The notes under the pieces: generated by a model
Databases searched by the model: none
Seen by the model: only the letters and a program-made list of their open reading frames with translations
What the model was told of the DNA's origin: nothing
Position numbers and translations under genes: made by a program
Shown: positions 11,934-23,537 of the stretch, in pieces
Position numbering within the stretch: position 1 is the stretch's first letter
How the letters are laid out: each line of letters begins with the position of its first letter
From: Campylobacterota bacterium
Lineage (GTDB): Bacteria; Campylobacterota; Campylobacteria; Campylobacterales; Arcobacteraceae
DNA length: 33,387 nucleotides
Reading direction: 5' to 3'
Assembly: GCA_003643835.1 (NCBI GenBank)
Contig: QMKX01000016.1
Coordinates: 1-33,387 of the forward strand

Positions 11934-12297
11934 GGGCTAGACATGGTTTCGACTATATTAACTCGATATGAGTAGCATGTTCGTGTGAGTTACGACAAAA
12001 ACTCAAAAATTTTAGACGCAAATAATACAAATTATTCTCCAGCTTTCGCTAAAGTAGCGTAAGTTTAATTTTTGGAGCCAGCTTTTATGTGTAGCTATCG
12101 CATATATTTTGGGTTGGTCATAGTCTGATAGCTTGTTGTGTAGGTGTTGGTCTCATCTATACAAGACACCCTTGACCTTTGTTTGTATGGCATTTGGAAG
12201 CTTCGCTGCACAAGACGAGATATAAGCTTTGCTAAGCATGTAGAAGCTTGTGTTAGGTTGGTTTAGGACTGGGGTTCGATCCCCCACTGGTCCACCA
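11934..12297 (+). ncRNA. ssrA: tmRNA (ssrA), tag ANNTNYSPAFAKVA
   Basis: The tRNA-like ends pair: GGGCTAG at 11934-11940 with CTGGTCC at 12287-12293, followed by an encoded CCA (12295-12297) and a T arm GGGTTCGATCCCC. The resume codon GCA at 12018 opens the frame GCA-AAT-AAT-ACA...GTA-GCG-TAA (12018-12062), encoding ANNTNYSPAFAKVA, close to the known Campylobacter ANNVKFAPAYAKAA and Helicobacter tags. The length of 364 bases fits a standard one-piece tmRNA. It rescues stalled ribosomes together with SmpB. Confidence 0.96.
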
Positions 12298-13903: not shown

Positions 13904-13971
13904 TTTTATAATCTTTAGATATCATAACCTATGTTCCAGATATCTATCCTCAAAAACTTTGTCAAGTCTTA
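13904..13971 (+). pseudogene. Orphan 5' end of a type IIG enzyme gene
   Basis: This stretch matches 16101-16168, the promoter-proximal region and first 14 codons of the intact type IIG gene: TTTTATAATCTTT, then ATG (13931) and MFQISILKNFVKSY. After that it diverges into the hairpin repeat (copy 2). It is a remnant of a second copy of the same restriction-modification gene. Confidence 0.75.
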
Positions 13972-13996
13972 TATAACAGAATGTGTAAATAGTCTT

Positions 13997-14117
13997 GAGC
14001 ACACGGTGCGAACACTCGTTAGGAATTGACACAGGCTTTTAGCCTATGGCAAGGAGCACGAGTGAGACATCTATGGGCTTTTAGCATATTTGTGTCAAGA
14101 CTTCAGGCTTGATACAA
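13997..14117 (+). repeat. Hairpin-bearing repeat, copy 2
   Basis: Begins GAGCACACGGTGCGAACAC, contains an AGGCT-TTT-AGCCT hairpin (14034-14046), then ACGAGTGAGACATCTA, and ends in TTGTGTCAAG/CTTGATACAA around the loop ACTTCAGG (14090-14117). It matches copy 1 (5227-5375, minus strand) in the fixed blocks, while the stems differ yet still pair. It follows a truncated restriction gene in the same orientation as copy 1 does. The remaining 14118-14218 holds a GATACAAT promoter and AGAGGT ribosome binding site for the methyltransferase. Confidence 0.65.
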
Positions 14118-14218
14118 AAAAAATGTTGAACTGATATTTTCTAACAATTTTTATTTTACAATTATCAAGAAATAACTAAATTTTATTATTTTAAGATACA
14201 ATTACAAAAAGAGGTAAA

Positions 14219-15379
14219 ATGTATAAAGAAATATCAATAAACTATAAAAATAATCTCAATCATCAGGATATATCTACAATAAAACAATTTAACAATTCAT
14301 TCGATGAAAATGAGGTTAAAATTGATTATATTGACAATAAAATTAAGATTATGTTAAAAGAGATCGATATAAATAAACTGAAAAATATTATAAAAGAACC
14401 CTCAAACAATACAAATAAAGATATTTATGATGATATTTTAAAATCTATTGAAGGTGTCAAGAGTTATGGTCTAAAAGGTAACAAGCGAAAATATGTAGAC
14501 TACAACAAAGAGAGAAAAGTAACAAACAGGAAAGAAAAAGAACTAAAAAGAAATCAATACTATTATGCTAAAGATAACCAATTTTCGAAAACAATAAACT
14601 CGCTTCCAGAAAAATATACAAATAAAATAATAGTAGGGGACAGCAAGCAAATTCTATCGAATATTCCAGATAACTCTATAGATATAATTTTCACATCCCC
14701 ACCATACAATTTTGGACTTGACTACGCAAACAATCAAGATGATGAACACTGGGAAGATTATTTTGAAAAGCTTTTTTCAATTTTCAAAGAGTGTATAAGA
14801 GTATTGAAGTATGGAGGTAGAATCATTGTAAATGTTCAGCCGCTATTTTCTGACTATGTACCCAGCCATCATCTTATCAGTAATTTTTTTATAAAAGAAA
14901 AACTTATCTGGAAAGGCGAAATACTTTGGGAAAAAAATAATTACAACTGTAAGTATACAGCATGGGGTAGTTGGAAGAGTCCGAGCAATCCATATTTAAA
15001 ATACACTTGGGAGTTTATAGAGGTATTTTGTAAAGGCGAAATGAAGAAAGTTGGAAACAAAGATGATATAAGCATATCTGCTGATGAGTTTAAAAAATGG
15101 GTTGTAGCAAAATGGTCAATAGCTCCAGAAAGAAATATGAAAAAATATGACCATCCAGCTATGTTTCCTGAAGAGTTAGTAGATAGAGTTTTGAAGCTTT
15201 TTAGTTATGAAGGCGATATTGTGTTGGATCCATTTAATGGAGTCGGCACTACAACAGCGGTGGCAAAAAAACTCAATAGAAATTATATGGGTATTGATAT
15301 ATCAAGTGAGTATTGCAAAATTGCCCAAGAAAGAATCAAAAACATAAAGGGCGAAGTTGGGTTGTTTGCAGATGAATAA
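14219..15379 (+). CDS. Type II DNA methyltransferase (N6-adenine or N4-cytosine, beta class)
   Basis: 386 residues. The catalytic motif IV TSPPYN is at 159-164 and the S-adenosylmethionine motif I LDPFNGVGTTTAVA at 336-349; this order (IV before I) defines the beta class. TSPPYN occurs in both N4-cytosine and some N6-adenine enzymes, so the base methylated is open. About 130 extra N-terminal residues rich in lysine and asparagine precede the core and may help recognise DNA. The endonuclease gene overlaps its end by eight bases, so this is a type II restriction-modification operon and the methylase protects the host. It begins at ATG 14219 after AGAGGT. Its AT-rich composition suggests horizontal transfer. 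Confidence 0.9.
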   Translation: MYKEISINYKNNLNHQDISTIKQFNNSFDENEVKIDYIDNKIKIMLKEIDINKLKNIIKEPSNNTNKDIYDDILKSIEGVKSYGLKGNKRKYVDYNKERKVTNRKEKELKRNQYYYAKDNQFSKTINSLPEKYTNKIIVGDSKQILSNIPDNSIDIIFTSPPYNFGLDYANNQDDEHWEDYFEKLFSIFKECIRVLKYGGRIIVNVQPLFSDYVPSHHLISNFFIKEKLIWKGEILWEKNNYNCKYTAWGSWKSPSNPYLKYTWEFIEVFCKGEMKKVGNKDDISISADEFKKWVVAKWSIAPERNMKKYDHPAMFPEELVDRVLKLFSYEGDIVLDPFNGVGTTTAVAKKLNRNYMGIDISSEYCKIAQERIKNIKGEVGLFADE

Positions 15380-16082
15380 AATGGACAGAAAAATAAAAGA
15401 ACTCATAGGAGACTACAATAGTGTAGTGAAAGTTATAGATAAAGATGCCAAAGATAGCGATGATAGATCGTATGGCGGTATGATACGAAGTGTCAAAGGA
15501 AAGTTGCAAGAACATATAACTGAAGAGATAGTCAAAGTAGCTTGGGAAGATATTGGTGGCTGCGAGGATAGAATAAATATAAATTCTAAAAAACAACAAA
15601 TCCATATTTTAAAAGATTATGTCAAGGCAATAGAAAATAATGATATCAAAAAATATATACTATCCAACATAGATGAATATTATTATGGATTAAGTGTAGA
15701 TAAGCAAGTATTTATTGATGGTGATATGGTGATAGGCATAGAGTGTAAATCATACACAGAAAATGCTATGATAAAAAGAATATTGGTTGATTTTAGTTTA
15801 TTGAAAACTATATATCCAAAACTACACTGTTATCTTTTTCAGTTAGAAAGCCAACTCGGAGGTGACTATAGCGATACTAATAACAGATCATTGGGTAGCA
15901 CTTCAACACATACATTGATGTCTTACTTTAAAGATACGAAACTAAATATAATCACATTTTTAAAAGGTGAAAGAAAAGTTGATAGGCCAATACACAAACC
16001 CGGTTTTTTCAAACCTCTAAAAAAGAACGAGATAAAAAAAGCAATCACACAAATACAAAATGATCTAAAACAATATCTGTGA
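15372..16082 (+). CDS. Type II restriction endonuclease (PD-(D/E)XK type)
   Basis: 236 residues from ATG 15372 (MNKMDRKIKELIGDYN), overlapping the methyltransferase end; a second ATG at 15381 is an alternative, and the track start at TTG 15357 is less likely. The central DKQVFIDGDMVIGIECKSYTEN fits a PD-(D/E)XK nuclease core, with D in the first strand and E-C-K in the second, followed by QLESQLGGDY. The context beside a cognate methylase makes it the cutting partner. The recognition sequence cannot be read from the protein, and I cannot name a characterised homologue. Confidence 0.8.
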   Translation: MNKMDRKIKELIGDYNSVVKVIDKDAKDSDDRSYGGMIRSVKGKLQEHITEEIVKVAWEDIGGCEDRININSKKQQIHILKDYVKAIENNDIKKYILSNIDEYYYGLSVDKQVFIDGDMVIGIECKSYTENAMIKRILVDFSLLKTIYPKLHCYLFQLESQLGGDYSDTNNRSLGSTSTHTLMSYFKDTKLNIITFLKGERKVDRPIHKPGFFKPLKKNEIKKAITQIQNDLKQYL

Positions 16083-16128
16083 TATAAACATGTTTGAATT
16101 ATTTTATAATCTTTGGATATTATAGCCC

Positions 16129-18945
16129 ATGTTCCAGATATCCATACTCAAAAACTTTGTCAAGTCCTACAGCTCACCACCAAATGAGAAAATAGACACA
16201 ATCCACAAGCTTGTCACCAAACCATACATAGCAGAAGATGCCAATGGTGCCGAATACATAACCTTGCTATCACAGCTACTAAACTGGTCAAATATATCCA
16301 GAGAGGTCAAAAACACCACTGACATGAAAAAAGCAGATGGTGTAGTATATGACAAACACGACAACCCTATAGCGATAATCGAGCTAAAAAGTAGCGACAA
16401 AAATATCTCAAACACAGACACTATAGCCCAAGCATTTCGCTACAAAAACGAAAAACCAACTTGCAAAGTAGTGATAATATCCAACTTCAAACAGCTAGAC
16501 ATATATAGCGATAGTAGTGACAAGTGCTTTCGCTTTGATATGACCGATAGACAAAACTACAAGACACTATATGCCCTGCTATGCCAAAGCTCCTTAGACA
16601 CAGGGCATATAAGTAGGCTAAAAGCGATATCCAAGTCCCAAGAGCAGATCACCAAAGAGGTATATAGGTTATACAGTAGCTTCCGCCTACAGCTTATCAA
16701 CAATCTTATAGCCAACAACCCAAACCAAACCAAAGAGCAACTACTAGCACACTCTGTCAAGCTACTAGACAGATATATGTTTGTTTTATTTGCCGAGGAT
16801 AGAGGGCTAATACCAGCAAACAGCATAGACAAGATCATAGCTCAATACGAGACAGCCAAAGACGGATGGGACGAGGCGAGACCGCTTTACTATTACTACA
16901 AAAAGTATTTTGAGTTTATAGACATAGGCAATCCATCGCTGGATATACCACGATACAACGGCAACTTGTTCAAGCCAGATGTAGAGCTAGACAACCTAAA
17001 TATAGATGATAGTATCATCAAGGAGGATTTGTCAAAGCTATCTGCATATGATTTTAGTGACGACGTAGATGTAGAAGTTTTGGGACATATATTTGAACAA
17101 TCATTAAACGACTTAGAACAGATAAAAGAGTCGCTCATAGCCACCCATACAGTCGTAGATACTAGAAAAAAGGACGGAGTGTATTATACTCCTAAGTTTA
17201 TCACGAGATATATCATAGAACACACCATAGGGACACTATGCTATGAACGCAAACTCTCACTAGACCTACTGCAACCCATGAGCGACACCGCTACGAAAAA
17301 ACAGAAGCAAACCAAACTAGCAAACCTCAAGCTATACAAGAGCTACATAGAAAACCTAAAGATAGTTGACCCTGCTTGTGGTAGTGGGGCATTTCTAAAT
17401 ATGGCATATCGCTACTTGCTAGAGGAACACCAATATATCCAAACCCTACAAGCCAAAGCAGGGGCAGGACTACTAGATATGCACCACATAGACAAAAGTA
17501 TCATAGAAAACAACCTATACGGAGTAGATATCAACACCGCCTCAGTGGGCATAGCCAAGCTATCACTGTGGCTACAGACTGCCAAACGAGATAGACCACT
17601 GAGCGATCTCATGCACAATATAATCTGTGCCAACTCTTTGACTGCAAACTGGAGCGAACTGTTTCCACAGATTATGGCAGATGGTGGCTTTACTAAAGAA
17701 ACCTCGGCAAAGCCGACCGCATCTGCTGGTTTTGATGTGGTGATAGGCAATCCGCCGTATGGAGCAGCATTTTCAACAGAAGACAAAAACAACTTAAAAG
17801 AGATTTACAAAACAATACATAAAGGCAAGTTTGATAGTTATTATTATTTTATAAAAAGGGGAGTTGATATTTTGAAGCAAGATGGACTACTCGGCTATAT
17901 TGTGCCAGACACTTGGACTTCGCTACAACAAACAGAAAAACTAAGAAAATTTATTTTAGATAATAATATTTTAGCATTAGAAAAATATAATTTTAAAGTA
18001 TTTGAAGATGCAAATGTAGATACAATCAGCATAATAATAGAAAAAGCAAACAAGTTAAACGAAAAAATAAATATTACTATCGTAAACAAGGATTTTGAGA
18101 AACAAGCAAAGCAAGTTTCTCAAAATAGATTTTTAAAAAATGATAGTTATATTTTCAATTATCAAATTAGCGAAAATGATGTAAATATATTATCCAAAAT
18201 AAAAAAAGATAAATTACAGATAAAAGATTTTTGTGAGTGGAGTCAGGGGCTAATTCCTTATGATAAATATACTGGAATGTCAAAAGACATGATTAAAAAT
18301 AGGGTTTATCATTCTGACTATAAAAAAGATAAAACTTACAAGGAAGAATTGGCAGGAAAAGATATAAGCAAATATGATTTACAATGGAACGGCAATAACT
18401 GGATAAGCTATGGAGACTGGCTAGCATCACCAAGGAAACAAAAGTTTTTTACAAGTCCTAGAATTTTAGTCCAAAGGATAAGAAATCCAAGATTAAAAAT
18501 AAGAATAGTTGCTACATATACAGAGGAAGAATATTATAATAATCCAGCGTTAAGCAACTTTATAAGTCTAGAAAATTCAAATATAGACTTAAAGTTTATT
18601 TTGGCAATATTAAATTCAAAAATGATAAATTGGATTTATACAAAAAGCTTCACAGATGTAAATATCAAACCAACTGATTTAGAAAAACTACCAATCCCAG
18701 ATATATCAAAAGAGAAACAAAAACCATTTATAGATTTAGTAGATACCATCATAGACACAAAAGAGAAAACTAGAAAATACAACAAGCACTTCGATAGTTT
18801 AAATGCAGTTCAGAGAATAGAGATACAAGAAGAGATTGAGAAGTTGGAGGGTTTAGTTTTGAGTAGTATTGACGAGATTGATAGTTTGGTTTATGGGTTG
18901 TATGGGTTGAGTAGTGATGAAGTTAAGATTGTTGAGGGCAAATAA
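16129..18945 (+). CDS. Type IIG restriction-modification enzyme (Eco57I-like single chain)
   Basis: 938 residues combining nuclease, methylase and target recognition. The N-terminal PD-(D/E)XK domain has KKADGVVYDKHDNPIAIIELKS (D70, E85, K87). A helical linker follows (about 150-350), then the methylase with motif I VDPACGSGAF (413-422), the YGVDIN acidic loop, and motif IV NPPY (541-544, adenine type). From about residue 550 the target-recognition part is much more AT-rich than the first half, and the last 60 residues (EKLEGLVLSSIDEIDSLVYG) form a coiled tail. It should cut and methylate at one site using S-adenosylmethionine. Orphan copies of its start (13904) and end (19807) flank the locus. 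Confidence 0.92.
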   Translation: MFQISILKNFVKSYSSPPNEKIDTIHKLVTKPYIAEDANGAEYITLLSQLLNWSNISREVKNTTDMKKADGVVYDKHDNPIAIIELKSSDKNISNTDTIAQAFRYKNEKPTCKVVIISNFKQLDIYSDSSDKCFRFDMTDRQNYKTLYALLCQSSLDTGHISRLKAISKSQEQITKEVYRLYSSFRLQLINNLIANNPNQTKEQLLAHSVKLLDRYMFVLFAEDRGLIPANSIDKIIAQYETAKDGWDEARPLYYYYKKYFEFIDIGNPSLDIPRYNGNLFKPDVELDNLNIDDSIIKEDLSKLSAYDFSDDVDVEVLGHIFEQSLNDLEQIKESLIATHTVVDTRKKDGVYYTPKFITRYIIEHTIGTLCYERKLSLDLLQPMSDTATKKQKQTKLANLKLYKSYIENLKIVDPACGSGAFLNMAYRYLLEEHQYIQTLQAKAGAGLLDMHHIDKSIIENNLYGVDINTASVGIAKLSLWLQTAKRDRPLSDLMHNIICANSLTANWSELFPQIMADGGFTKETSAKPTASAGFDVVIGNPPYGAAFSTEDKNNLKEIYKTIHKGKFDSYYYFIKRGVDILKQDGLLGYIVPDTWTSLQQTEKLRKFILDNNILALEKYNFKVFEDANVDTISIIIEKANKLNEKINITIVNKDFEKQAKQVSQNRFLKNDSYIFNYQISENDVNILSKIKKDKLQIKDFCEWSQGLIPYDKYTGMSKDMIKNRVYHSDYKKDKTYKEELAGKDISKYDLQWNGNNWISYGDWLASPRKQKFFTSPRILVQRIRNPRLKIRIVATYTEEEYYNNPALSNFISLENSNIDLKFILAILNSKMINWIYTKSFTDVNIKPTDLEKLPIPDISKEKQKPFIDLVDTIIDTKEKTRKYNKHFDSLNAVQRIEIQEEIEKLEGLVLSSIDEIDSLVYGLYGLSSDEVKIVEGK

Positions 18946-18950
18946 ACTAA

Positions 18951-19736
18951 ATGAAAATACTTGATTGGCGTAATCATAACCAAAGAATAAATATCACCAA
19001 TAGCTTTATAAGTTCAAAAGTACTTCGAGATATTTCTTGTTCTGGAGCCGAGTATTTCTATGCAGATGACTTAAGTTGGTTGCCTAACGATTTTGATAAA
19101 ATTTTATTTAGAAAAAATTTTCTAAAATTATATAAAGGAATTAAATGTTTTCATGCATGTTCGCCTGTAAATATAGACAATTATTTGATAAATGGCTTCA
19201 CTGGTGGAAACCATGAAAAGGCTATTGCGATATTTAATAAAATATTTTCTGATATTCCTGATGAGTATAGAAAAAAAGCAATAGTAGAGATTTCTAGATC
19301 CAGAGAAGATGAAGCACTGAAAACATTTTTTTTATGCGATAGTAAGTGTCTTATAAATAAAGACGGGCATTATCTAATTTATGGTAGCGAATATTTAATT
19401 GTATTGGCTGCTAATTTATCTGCTCAAAAAATTTCCACTGAATATTTTAGACAGAGGCTAAAAGGTATTGGAATTCCGACAATAATTGAAGCTGATATAG
19501 ATTTCTCTCTACTAGATAATAAACAAATTGATTATTTGATTGATTACTCTCTTTCAGACTGGGCAAATTATAATATATTTAATAGTCAATTTACACCTTC
19601 AGAAATGTCAATAATCGCAAAACAAAAGCTTCCATCGTCTGTAATAATCAATCATTGGCATCCTGAAAAAATTCATGACCCGTTTAACTGGGGCAAATGG
19701 TATAGTCCAGATAAAACAACCTGTTCCAGTTGTTAG
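18951..19736 (+). CDS. Unrecognised protein between the type IIG gene and an orphan C-terminus
   Basis: 261 residues, ATG 18951 just five bases after the type IIG stop, without a strong ribosome binding site, so probably coupled. The text KGIKCFHACSPVNIDNYLIN with GF after it, then HYLIYGSEYLIVLAANLS and GIPTIIEADIDFSLL, and a C-terminus ending TTCSSC. A histidine motif (FHAC) followed later by YGSEYL loosely recalls the H-Y-E layout of ADP-ribosyltransferase-like folds, but this is only a hint. Its AT-rich composition matches the recognition part of the upstream gene. It is wedged between the enzyme and a leftover enzyme end, so it probably arrived with the island. Confidence 0.65.
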   Translation: MKILDWRNHNQRINITNSFISSKVLRDISCSGAEYFYADDLSWLPNDFDKILFRKNFLKLYKGIKCFHACSPVNIDNYLINGFTGGNHEKAIAIFNKIFSDIPDEYRKKAIVEISRSREDEALKTFFLCDSKCLINKDGHYLIYGSEYLIVLAANLSAQKISTEYFRQRLKGIGIPTIIEADIDFSLLDNKQIDYLIDYSLSDWANYNIFNSQFTPSEMSIIAKQKLPSSVIINHWHPEKIHDPFNWGKWYSPDKTTCSSC

Positions 19737-19785
19737 TTAATAGCTTGTTCCAAAGTTTAAAGCATTAGAATATATACTTACGGTA

Positions 19786-19810
19786 TGCCTCATTCCATCG
19801 TCCAAGATGG
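19786..19810 (+). repeat. Degenerate CATCGTCCACGATG-type repeat
   Basis: TGCCTCATTCCATCGTCCAAGATGG is a decayed copy of the palindromic repeat found in the toxin-antitoxin spacers (24248-24261, 24919-24932). It directly abuts the orphan C-terminus of the type IIG enzyme, so it marks a recombination joint. Confidence 0.55.
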
Positions 19811-19869
19811 TTTATGGGCTGTATTGGTTGAGTGCGGAAGAGAAGCAGATAGTGGAGGGTAGAGAGTAG
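19807..19869 (+). pseudogene. Orphan 3' end of a type IIG enzyme gene
   Basis: Reads VYGLYWLSAEEKQIVEGRE-stop, a divergent copy of the last residues of the intact enzyme (VYGLYGLSSDEVKIVEGK). With the orphan 5' end at 13904 it shows that a second, related enzyme once occupied this locus or that a duplication was partly replaced. Confidence 0.75.
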
Positions 19870-19999: not shown

Positions 20000-21169
20000 A
20001 TGAATTTTTTCTTAACAACATATATTTTTCCAATACAACATGAAATAATTTTATCTAATAAATTAAATTTTAAACTAGATAATCCAAGAACAAAAGATGA
20101 AATCAATATCATAAAAGAAAATTTAAAAGTATCATTAGATAGTCCAGATAAAATGTATAAACATAATAAATATATGAGAATACCAATAAATAATATTGAT
20201 GAAAACATGCTATCTATTGAGAAAGCATTACAAAAATTTTATAAAAAATACAAAGATAATAATTATATACATGATTTCTATTTATTAAATAACGATTGTG
20301 ATATTTTAGAACAACTTGCAAAAATGTGGATTATCGCAAGATTTAGTGAAAGTAAAAATCAAAAACTAAAAGAAGAACATGAAACAATAATAAAAATTGG
20401 ACACAAGTACTTAAAAATGTTAGATGACAATCATCCAAAAATACAAAATTCTGATAATCTAATAAATTTTTCATATTTATTATCGGTACTAATCAATAAT
20501 GAAAAAGATGAATATTGCGGAACAGGTTTCATTCTTCATAGTGACATAAATAGACTTCTGGAGCCTATGCTTGATCTACATCTCAACAGCACCGTAATGA
20601 TGTTTTCAATACAGGCATATAGGGAATGCAGTGGCAACAGACAGCCTGAATGGGAAACAAATTTTGAATACATAAAAGATATAATCATTAATAATTCAAA
20701 AAAAATTGAAAAATTATTATCCGGTGATATAAAAGAAAAATTATTATACATTTCAAACTTATTAAAAGAAGCATCAAATACAAGTGATGAAAAATTAAAA
20801 TTGATGTCATATGTTTCTATTTTAGAATTGTTGCTTACACATAATCCTGATGAGCATAAATATAATGTTGAGAATTCTATTGCGAAACAGTTTCAAACAA
20901 AAATTGCAATCTTAGTATATTTACACTTAGATAGAAAAGAAGATTTAAAACAATTAAAAAACAAGTTAAAAATAATTTATAATCAAAGATCAAACATAGC
21001 ACATGGAAATTTTAAAAAATATAAAAACTATGTAGACAGTTTATCCAAAAAAGAAGGAACTGAAGAGTATTTTACTGATTTGATAACTGATACAATTTAT
21101 TTTATAAGAATAATACTATCCGAGTACATTGAAGATGTAGATTTTGTAGATTTTTTAAAAGAAAATTAA
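20000..21169 (+). CDS. HEPN-domain protein, candidate abortive-infection RNase
   Basis: 389 residues. The C-terminal third is helical and contains YNQRSNIAHG, with R330 and H335 in the R-x4-H spacing that is the RNase active-site signature of HEPN proteins; upstream LMSYVSILELLLTH is the typical preceding helix. This layout recalls Apea-type/Abi HEPN proteins, which cut RNA on phage infection. The N-terminal 250 residues (MNFFLTTYIFPIQ) look like a sensing or substrate domain and are not recognised. It lies behind the restriction-modification genes, in a very AT-rich stretch. No antitoxin gene is visible beside it, so the structured leader may matter for control. Confidence 0.7.
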   Translation: MNFFLTTYIFPIQHEIILSNKLNFKLDNPRTKDEINIIKENLKVSLDSPDKMYKHNKYMRIPINNIDENMLSIEKALQKFYKKYKDNNYIHDFYLLNNDCDILEQLAKMWIIARFSESKNQKLKEEHETIIKIGHKYLKMLDDNHPKIQNSDNLINFSYLLSVLINNEKDEYCGTGFILHSDINRLLEPMLDLHLNSTVMMFSIQAYRECSGNRQPEWETNFEYIKDIIINNSKKIEKLLSGDIKEKLLYISNLLKEASNTSDEKLKLMSYVSILELLLTHNPDEHKYNVENSIAKQFQTKIAILVYLHLDRKEDLKQLKNKLKIIYNQRSNIAHGNFKKYKNYVDSLSKKEGTEEYFTDLITDTIYFIRIILSEYIEDVDFVDFLKEN

Positions 21170-21949: not shown

Positions 21950-22165
21950 TGCCTCGTTCCCAACGTCCTCATTGGGAATGCATACATGACAAACAACCGA
22001 AATAATAGACAAAACAAGAGAATCGCTTTTGCTTTAGCAAAATGTTTCCTGCAAAAGTAGCCGTGGCGATTTTTTGTGATAACAAAAAAACTTTCTATAA
22101 AACAAGAGAATCGCTTTTTTCGTAGAAAAAATGTTTCCTGTAAAAAGCCATATAGTCAGACTATT
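21950..22165. repeat. Spacer A: palindromic repeat plus hairpin repeats
   Basis: Begins TGCCTCGTTCCCAACGTCCT with a TTCCCAA/TTGGGAA palindrome, then GCATACATGACAAACAACC, a block shared with spacers at 24262 and 24933. After that come two relatives of the 45-bp unit: AGAGAATCGCTTTTGCTTTAG...GTTTCCTG and AGAGAATCGCTTTTTTCG...GTTTCCTG, with TAGCCGTGGCGATTTTT between. No gene is supported in 21932-22270 apart from these and the promoter at 22230. Confidence 0.6.
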
Positions 22166-23314: not shown

Positions 23315-23449
23315 AAAACTAGCCGTGGCGATTTTTGCTTTAGCAAAAAAGTTTCTGTGAAAACTAGCCGTGGCGATTTTTGCTTTAGCAAAAAAGTTTC
23401 TGTGAAAACTAGCCGTGGCGATTTTTGCTTTAGCAAAAAAGTTTCTGTG
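23315..23449. repeat. Three tandem 45-bp repeats with internal hairpin
   Basis: Three identical units (23315-23359, 23360-23404, 23405-23449), each starting AAAACTAGCCGTGGCG and containing TTTTTGCT-TT-AGCAAAAA. Since 45 is a multiple of three, each unit is open in several frames, which creates spurious repeat ORFs on both strands. Diverged single copies lie at 22010-22140 and within the mini-element at 369-470. There are no variable spacers, so this is not a CRISPR array. Confidence 0.9.
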
Positions 23450-23537
23450 AAAAAGCTAAACTCCTTTTATGCTATCGATGGTTGTGGTGATGGTTTGTTT
23501 GAAAACAAAAGCATACAATCTATCAAGTCAAATAAGT

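What the first reader, a model, noticed from the sequence alone, without database searches (positions are those of the whole stretch)
13904..19869. Type IIG gene flanked by orphan copies of its own start and end
The first 14 codons plus promoter region recur at 13904-13971, and the last 19 codons recur, diverged, at 19807-19869. A full type II operon and the intact enzyme sit between, and an unknown gene sits between enzyme and orphan tail. The order fits replacement or duplication at a restriction hot spot, with hairpin and palindromic repeats at both joints.
Basis: seen in the sequence. Interest (0 to 1): 0.55.

Follow-up and report, generated by a model that had tools for sequence, protein, structure and literature searches.

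The report
Recombination scars at restriction gene ends
In an Arcobacter-like bacterium a restriction gene appears to have been rebuilt by DNA exchange that placed another restriction system in front of it and an unknown gene behind it, leaving spare copies of a gene start and end as scars, and such scars recur in related bacteria.

Summary
The repeats are real. Head copy 13904-13971 matches 16102-16169 at 61/68; 19803-19869 is a IIG tail. The intact enzyme is a mosaic: codons 34-512 are close to a congeneric homologue (G002; 13% synonymous change), while its first 33 codons and its AT-rich second half are not. The orphan tail matches G002's tail (53/57) better than the intact gene's tail (40/57): it reads as the displaced end of the resident gene, pushed past an imported specificity half plus an unknown gene. 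The orphan head is sister to the intact head, not G002-like, and brackets a type II operon, as in insertion with long target duplication. So: two scars, not one displaced enzyme. In 298 Campylobacterales genomes, at one E-value limit, 27 of 86 IIG tails and 7 of 63 heads sit in short frames not cut by contig ends, against 0 of 150 listed middles. Three genomes keep only head and tail; two keep an Eco47II-type operon between them; in a sister-species pair one site holds an intact IIG or a head-tail minigene, each followed by a different overlapping gene. Best reading: conserved parts of IIG genes are recombination anchors through which defence genes are exchanged, leaving ends behind.

The parts
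13904..13971 (+). orphan IIG head: promoter-like element plus first 13-14 codons; the frame stops after about 21 codons
   Evidence: 61/68 to 16102-16169; three coding differences, all synonymous (read)
13996..14103 (+). hairpin-forming repeat dispersed in the genus, between orphan head and methylase
   Evidence: seven further hits to 13996-14075 in own genome, copies in G001/G002; fold of 13990-14115 -35.6 kcal/mol, z -1.9, 7 of 200 shuffles as good
14219..15379 (+). type II DNA methyltransferase
   Evidence: PF01555 E 4e-44; PADLOC MTase_II
15372..16082 (+). type II restriction endonuclease (first ATG at 15372; the open frame begins with TTG at 15357; searched as 15366-16079)
   Evidence: PADLOC REase_II E 2e-106; relatives about 60% identical beside the same methylase in 5 genomes of one genus, one of them broken
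16102..16169 (+). head copy that starts the intact IIG gene
16129..18945 (+). intact type IIG enzyme, Eco57I family, 938 aa
   Evidence: PF07669, HSDR_N_2, TaqI_C; PADLOC REase_MTase_IIG E 1e-125
16228..17664 (+). core block of the IIG shared with the G002 homologue (codons 34-512)
   Evidence: 60/456 synonymous changes against 10/23 in codons 1-33; 91.7% nt identity over 16102-17664
17762..18945 (+). second half of the IIG (specificity part and tail), read as imported
   Evidence: apart from a 28-nt motif no DNA match to the G002 homologue between 17762 and 18668; GC3 21.5% for 17761-18708 against 45% in the core
18951..19736 (+). cargo gene of unknown function, 261 aa, 5 nt after the IIG stop
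   Evidence: no Pfam/NCBIfam/PADLOC family; relatives on 14 plasmid records, best 31-33% identical, one beside SAVED/ThiF/nucleotidyltransferase genes; GC3 20.7%
19803..19869 (+). orphan IIG tail, read as the end of the resident gene
   Evidence: 53/57 to G002 tail, 40/57 to intact tail

Best explanation
The locus is a type IIG gene rebuilt by at least two recombination events. Right side: incoming DNA crossed over inside the conserved methylase core (about 17664-17761), replaced the specificity half, brought its own tail and the unknown gene 18951-19736, and rejoined the chromosome at the old tail, which was left as the orphan at 19803-19869. Left side: a type II operon stands between two copies of the IIG head, as expected of insertion with long target duplication, or of a crossover in the early core that carried in a [head, operon, head] block; the intact enzyme keeps a promoter and start. 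Shown: mosaicism, composition, the allele affinity of the tail, repeats, and recurrence in other genomes. Inferred: order of events, and uptake of DNA with RecA-type recombination at the core and a short-homology join at the far end. I also infer that IIG genes are favoured sites because one polypeptide carries both activities, so that losing it is not lethal, and because the head keeps a promoter and the tail often holds the next gene's ribosome site.
For: Mosaic: synonymous change against G002 10/23 in codons 1-33, 60/456 in 34-512 (Fisher p 0.0006), and 8/20, 20/41, 18/49, 19/45 in the later bins; GC3 58/45/21.5/20.7% for head, core, C-half and unknown gene. Orphan tail 53/57 to G002, intact tail 41/57 to G002. 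Recurrence: 132 tail places in 92 of 298 genomes; 26 in frames under 150 aa, 24 after dropping two cut by contig ends; 11 tandem arrays. In 8 of the 11 arrays (11 intervals in 7 loci, plus the window) the intervals gave no IIG hit at E 0.001 except one of 13 residues. Heads: 73 places, 14 in frames under 150 aa, 10 after dropping four at or near contig ends. At one limit, E 1.1e-7: frames under 444 aa and not cut: tails 27 of 86 (3 cut ones dropped), heads 7 of 63 (5 cut ones dropped), middles 0 of 150 listed. Head and tail without body in G004, G211, G302; with the same C5-methylase/Eco47II-type operon between them in G054 and G073. Sister pair: between the same neighbours G221 has an intact IIG and G211 a head-tail minigene, each overlapping a different downstream gene.
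Against: No empty or single-head version of this very site was found; DNA searches found no matching flanks in the genus. The head copies differ at 7 of 68 positions, the three coding ones all synonymous, which fits two alleles of working genes at least as well as a fresh duplication. Codons 16-33 differ in half of their residues and may simply be a variable stretch, so the left breakpoint is weaker than the right one (codons 1-15 alone: 5/14 against 60/456, p 0.03). Relatives of this RM operon in five other genomes show no direct repeat of 30 nt or more around the operon. Several orphan heads (G139, G227:C112, G293, G242) look like plain decay, or stubs without a recognisable cargo pattern. 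Two arrays (G225, G065) hold repeated IIG pieces and fit duplication; one (G307) was not examined. A start close behind the tail is not clearly above background for short frames (12/33 against 52/228, p 0.07). The window's orphan tail has no gene start close behind it (next at 130 nt).
Confidence: 0.6

Rival explanations
1. One resident IIG gene was split: the whole block RM operon + second IIG + unknown gene was inserted into it with loss of its middle, so orphan head and tail are two ends of the same dead gene.
For: The order head-cargo-tail is seen elsewhere with a type II operon inside one IIG (G054, G073), so such events happen.
Against: The two ends have different affinities: tail G002-like (53/57), head not (56/68) and closest to the intact head (61/68). 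The inserted IIG would itself have to be a mosaic with a G002-like core.
Confidence: 0.17
2. Tandem duplication of a IIG gene followed by decay of one copy left fragments by chance.
For: Repeated IIG pieces exist in some arrays (G225 with three tails in one 1786-aa frame, G065); decayed heads exist.
Against: No middle hit in a frame under 444 aa among the 150 listed (list cut off near E 1e-7); intervals between tails in 8 of 11 arrays hold other genes and no IIG homology beyond one 13-residue hit; the orphan tail is closer to another genome's allele than to its neighbour.
Confidence: 0.12
3. The ends persist because they work: the head supplies promoter and start, and the tail's last codons (often GTG GAG GGN) supply the Shine-Dalgarno site of the next gene, so the body can be deleted in frame but the ends are kept. 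This explains survival rather than origin and can hold together with the best explanation.
For: Minigenes in G211 and G302 keep frame; the tail overlaps the next gene in G004 and G211 and abuts a TTG-started frame in G302. GAG instead of GAA at the tail Glu codon 38/60 against 786/2447 in the bodies, p 1e-6; next start within -11..+10 nt in 23/43 long frames against 52/228 background, p 8e-5.
Against: Short frames 12/33, p 0.07; the window's own orphan tail has no start close behind it and carries three amino-acid changes against G002 (my reading).
Confidence: 0.35
4. Assembly or binning artefact of a draft genome.
For: G000 has 40 contigs and the genus is rich in dispersed repeats, one of them at the left joint.
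Against: One search found no dispersed repeat at 19803 (the joint near 17700 was not searched as DNA); similar architectures occur in single-contig genomes (G004, G073) and on contigs of 161 and 183 kb (G211, G308).
Confidence: 0.04

Closest known systems
Insertion of RM systems with long target duplication in Helicobacter pylori (Nobusato et al. 2000, not looked up, known from citations; Furuta et al. 2010, not held; described in PMC4978471 section 20, read, and in one passage of PMC2749054)
   Same: An RM operon stands between direct repeats copied from the DNA it sits next to; in H. pylori, too, one RM system is thought possibly to have been inserted into another RM cluster in this way.
   Different: Here the repeated DNA is the start of a IIG gene, the repeats differ by 10%, a second scar of another kind lies at the gene's end, and in other genomes the cargo is often not an RM system (AbiD, DUF3800 protein, STAND-type protein, pentapeptide protein).
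Domain movement and TRD exchange in type I and type IIG specificity genes (passages of PMC3077401 and PMC3983042)
   Same: Recombination at conserved sequence changes the specificity part while the rest stays.
   Different: There the exchanged unit is a recognition domain in an S subunit; here the second half of a fused IIG enzyme comes together with a downstream gene and the old tail is left behind.
Spare-cassette systems such as hsdS or pglX inversion (recalled)
   Same: Extra partial copies lie near the intact gene.
   Different: No IIG homology lies between intact and orphan tail; no inverted copy of head or tail is among the pairs listed.

Membership tests
Type IIG (Eco57I-like) restriction-modification enzyme | single polypeptide with nuclease-like N-terminus, amino-methylase with NPPY, and TRD | tested here: met
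   HSDR_N_2, Eco57I and TaqI_C domains in one 938-aa frame; NPPY at residue 541; PADLOC IIG model E 1e-125
Type IIG (Eco57I-like) restriction-modification enzyme | cleavage and methylation activity | not testable with these tools
   needs protein or methylome
Insertion with long target duplication | RM unit flanked by direct repeats of target DNA | tested here: met
   13904-13971 / 16102-16169 around the operon, 61/68
Insertion with long target duplication | one repeat belongs to a target gene left uninterrupted | tested here: met
   16129-18945 open, 938 aa
Insertion with long target duplication | relative with the site empty and a single repeat copy | tested here: inconclusive
   G002 homologue has one head and no operon beside it but other flanks and a 3.8-kb contig; flanks not found in the genus as DNA
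Insertion with long target duplication | repeat copies identical or nearly so when young | tested here: not met
   7 of 68 differ; could be old
Specificity exchange by recombination within a conserved core | near-identical core joined to unrelated specificity half | tested here: met
Spare TRD cassette (shufflon-like) array | silent TRD copies beside the intact gene | tested here: not met
   no IIG hit in 18946-19802 at E 0.001 with 11 IIG proteins

The most novel reading that the evidence does not exclude
Type IIG genes of Campylobacterales are exchange slots. Their core, start and end serve as homology arms, and the end also as a ribosome-binding joint, through which unrelated restriction and defence genes are swapped between chromosomes by ordinary recombination, without transposase or integrase. 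Each swap leaves a displaced head or tail, so tandem heads and tails are a layered record of earlier occupants, and a head-tail minigene is the emptied slot.
Probability: 0.35. Interest if true: 0.72.

Novelty: new variant of a known kind. Interest (0 to 1): 0.52.

Why it matters
RM systems turn over very fast yet are poorly represented on mobile elements; a survey of 2261 genomes calls it an intriguing question how this can be (passage of PMC4176335). Scars made of the ends of a common RM gene would give a concrete, testable route: exchange by homologous recombination at conserved IIG sequence. They would also let one read from a genome which defence genes a slot held before, and would explain short unannotated frames in front of defence genes.

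Tried and rejected
Spare-TRD array: rejected, since no IIG homology lies between the two tails. One nested insertion: held as a rival; the two orphan ends have different affinities. Looking for the empty site in the genus: the flanks gave no matching neighbourhood as DNA. Relatives of the RM operon in five genomes of another genus (unnamed; Helicobacter is my guess from genome size and gene content), plus one weak hit in G082 that I did not follow: no hit of the window's IIG in the 10-kb stretches and no direct repeat of 30 nt or more around the operon. Solved structures for the REase and the unknown gene: nothing useful. Translational coupling as the sole reason for tail survival: only partly supported. 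Right-joint palindromes: not found. Promoter-like sites: 40 found against 30.9 expected (sd 5.5), terminator-like 4 against 2.7: not informative. My first comparison of ends and middles used unequal E-value limits; it was recounted at one limit (E-values and frame lengths typed; the 150 listed middle hits counted by eye).

Paper searches: among the titles and abstracts listed I saw no report of IIG ends as flanks of defence cargo. That is weak evidence: an open-access library only, one search listed 15 of 1,456 papers, and Nobusato 2000 and two papers by Furuta and Kobayashi (2010, 2012) were not read (the two not held).
Full report
WHAT WAS CHECKED. The window is contig 16 of a 1.43-Mb, 40-contig genome. 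A homologue of the IIG was found in a contig titled Arcobacteraceae bacterium GMC3_bin_14 (L039); its length (3780 bases) and match positions agree with G002:C10 of the same genus, so I treat them as one. The head repeat (13904-13971 against 16102-16169, 61/68) and the tail repeat (18887-18938 against 19808-19859, 75% of 52) are real. The head stretch has no third copy at E 0.001 in the genome. The order is orphan head, dispersed hairpin repeat, type II methylase, type II REase, head plus intact IIG, unknown gene, orphan tail.

THE INTACT ENZYME IS A MOSAIC. Against L039/G002 the DNA is 91.7% identical over 16102-17664, again 94% over the NPPY region 17728-17761, then shows only a 28-nt motif until 18668. 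By codon, synonymous change among identical residues is 10/23 in codons 1-33, 60/456 in codons 34-512, and 8/20, 20/41, 18/49 and 19/45 in the bins after that (Fisher p 0.0006 for codons 1-33 against 34-512; for codons 1-15 alone 5/14, p 0.03). GC3 is 58% in codons 1-33, 45% in the core, 21.5% in 17761-18708 and 20.7% in the unknown gene. The second half of the enzyme and the unknown gene therefore look like one imported piece. Which of the two homologues changed at the left breakpoint cannot be told.

THE TWO ORPHAN ENDS HAVE DIFFERENT AFFINITIES. The orphan tail is 53/57 to the G002 tail and 40/57 to the intact tail, which itself is 41/57 to G002. So the orphan tail goes with the G002-like core and reads as the old end of the resident gene. 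The orphan head is 61/68 to the intact head and 56/68 to G002 (intact head to G002 58/68). In its 13 full codons it differs from G002 in 6 and from the intact head in 3, all synonymous (my reading of the three sequences). One displaced gene does not explain both, though 68 and 57 positions are few.

RECURRENCE. A profile of IIG tails (A1) was searched in 298 Campylobacterales genomes: 132 places in 92 genomes. 26 are in frames under 150 aa; two of these are cut by contig ends (G059:C123, G246:C59), leaving 24. There are 11 tandem arrays with 16 secondary tails. A head profile (A2) gave 73 places in 53 genomes, 14 in frames under 150 aa, of which I drop four at or near contig ends (G056:C29:3, G059:C94:53, G296:C102, G076:C1), leaving 10. 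A profile of the methylase motif region (A3) gave a list of 150 places down to E 1.1e-7, by my count, the rest not shown; the shortest frame is 444 aa, and of the 55 with E below 1e-30 the shortest is 510 aa. At the same limit of 1.1e-7, frames under 444 aa not cut by a contig end hold 27 of 86 tails (3 more are cut) and 7 of 63 heads (5 more are cut). Ends survive; middles do not. Caveats: A3 also reaches other methylase families, and sequencing errors in drafts could shorten some frames.

WHAT LIES BETWEEN ENDS. In seven array loci, 11 intervals between successive tails had no IIG hit at E 0.001 except one of 13 residues, and neither had window 18946-19802 (11 IIG proteins as queries). Cargo there includes an AbiD/Abi_2 protein (G113), a DUF3800 protein (G308) and a pentapeptide-repeat protein (G301). 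Flanking tail repeats are 90% over 71 nt (G308), 96% over 101 nt and 94% over 181 nt (G301), others 67-93%; head repeats are 83-90% over 134 nt (G056). G225 and G065 instead hold repeated IIG pieces, so some arrays are duplications; G307 was not examined.

EMPTIED AND REFILLED GENES. In G211 and G302 about 35 head codons run in frame into about 21-23 tail codons (58 and 56 aa by my reading; open frames 69 and 71); in G004 head and tail adjoin with a frameshift. The tail overlaps the start of the next gene in G211 (1431 aa, STAND-type) and G004 (522-523 aa) and abuts a TTG-started 218-aa frame in G302. In G054 and G073, from two families, the same C5-methylase plus REase operon (82% and 87% identical between them) lies between a IIG head and a IIG tail; G009, from a third, has the operon and the tail, and its REase is the one matched to Eco47II. 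22 of 298 genomes have this REase; of the 20 loci fetched, 3 have the IIG tail beside it: three of the five most similar (85-100%) and none of the other 15 (flanks of up to 1500 bases only). One origin of the operon-tail link followed by spread is possible.

SISTER-SPECIES PAIR. G211 and G221 (same genus) share neighbours on both sides: the left flank 73% identical over 1056 nt, the right flank, which reads as isoleucyl-tRNA synthetase (recalled, no search), 85% over 1700 nt. Between them G221 has an intact 997-aa IIG whose stop overlaps a 183-aa gene; G211 has the head-tail minigene whose stop overlaps the 1431-aa gene. This is an occupied and an emptied version of one slot with different cargo at the tail joint. 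Only 2 of 11 genomes searched in that genus, G211 included, had the left neighbour gene, so this is a single pair.

WHY ENDS MIGHT BE KEPT. In 80 distinct tails in the loci then held the Glu codon of the final I-V-E is GAG in 38 of 60 against 786 of 2447 in the gene bodies (p 1e-6), giving GGAGG-like sequence just before the stop. The next start lies within -11 to +10 nt in 23 of 43 long frames (p 8e-5) and 12 of 33 short ones (p 0.07) against 52 of 228 background frames. The window's orphan tail has no such start. Coupling is thus a partial explanation at most.

THE WINDOW'S CARGO. The RM operon's REase is about 60% identical to proteins in five genomes of one other genus, beside the same methylase in each and broken in one; I recall HpyAIV (GANTC) as a candidate, untested. 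The unknown gene has relatives on 14 plasmid records, the best 31-33% identical (Halioglobus, Cupriavidus, Vibrio), none in phages at E 0.001 and one at 26% in 298 Campylobacterales; one Vibrio relative stands beside nucleotidyltransferase, ThiF and SAVED genes, which I read as a CBASS set.

MECHANISM. Shown: mosaic structure, allele affinity of the tail, direct repeats, recurrence, and one slot with two contents. Inferred: crossovers in the conserved core during uptake of foreign DNA; a far join at or near the old end; head duplication by target duplication or by import of a [head-operon-head] block; tolerance because a IIG carries both activities in one protein (established knowledge of postsegregational killing by two-gene RM systems, recalled).

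KNOWN AND NEW. RM insertion with long target duplication, possibly also into another RM cluster, is known in H. pylori (PMC4978471 section 20 read, PMC2749054 one passage). Domain movement in specificity genes is known (passages of PMC3077401 and PMC3983042). IIG ends as recurrent flanks of mixed defence cargo did not appear among the listings of my eight paper searches. I rate it a new variant of a known kind.

Noticed in passing
window 11934-12297: tmRNA gene (tag ANNTNYSPAFAKVA) 1.6 kb upstream of the orphan head; a classical integration neighbourhood, but no copy of its 3' end was sought downstream.
   Followed up: no
window 13996-14103: Hairpin-forming repeat dispersed in this genome and in G001/G002, some copies at contig ends.
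   Followed up: partly
window 22011-22130 and 23315-23453: Repeats (45-nt spacing, three identical 49-nt copies at 23315); most of the matches in G000, G001 and G002 fall on this kind of sequence, few in G003.
   Followed up: partly
L154 (G056:C29), minus strand: An intact IIG followed downstream by two orphan heads about 2.2 kb apart with other genes between: a head array.
   Followed up: partly
L112, L113, L114 (G301, three contigs): Arrays of IIG tails 0.7-4.6 kb apart with a pentapeptide gene, what reads like a toxin-antitoxin pair (untested) and other genes between; repeats up to 96% identical.
   Followed up: partly
L115 (G225:C1:1311500-1322500): One 1786-aa frame with three IIG tails and repeated IIG C-terminal hits.
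   Followed up: no
L118, L127, L069 (G009, G073, G054): Same C5-methylase/Eco47II-type RM operon followed by a IIG tail in three families; in two it also follows a IIG head.
   Followed up: yes
L157 (G293:C22) and L147 (G242:C21): Orphan IIG head behind the same upstream gene in two species: a stub of about 45 codons in one, a decayed longer gene in the other.
   Followed up: partly
window 20000-21169: 389-aa gene after the orphan tail, GC 23%, no family match; an R-x-x-x-A-H-like motif suggests a HEPN domain (recalled, untested).
   Followed up: no
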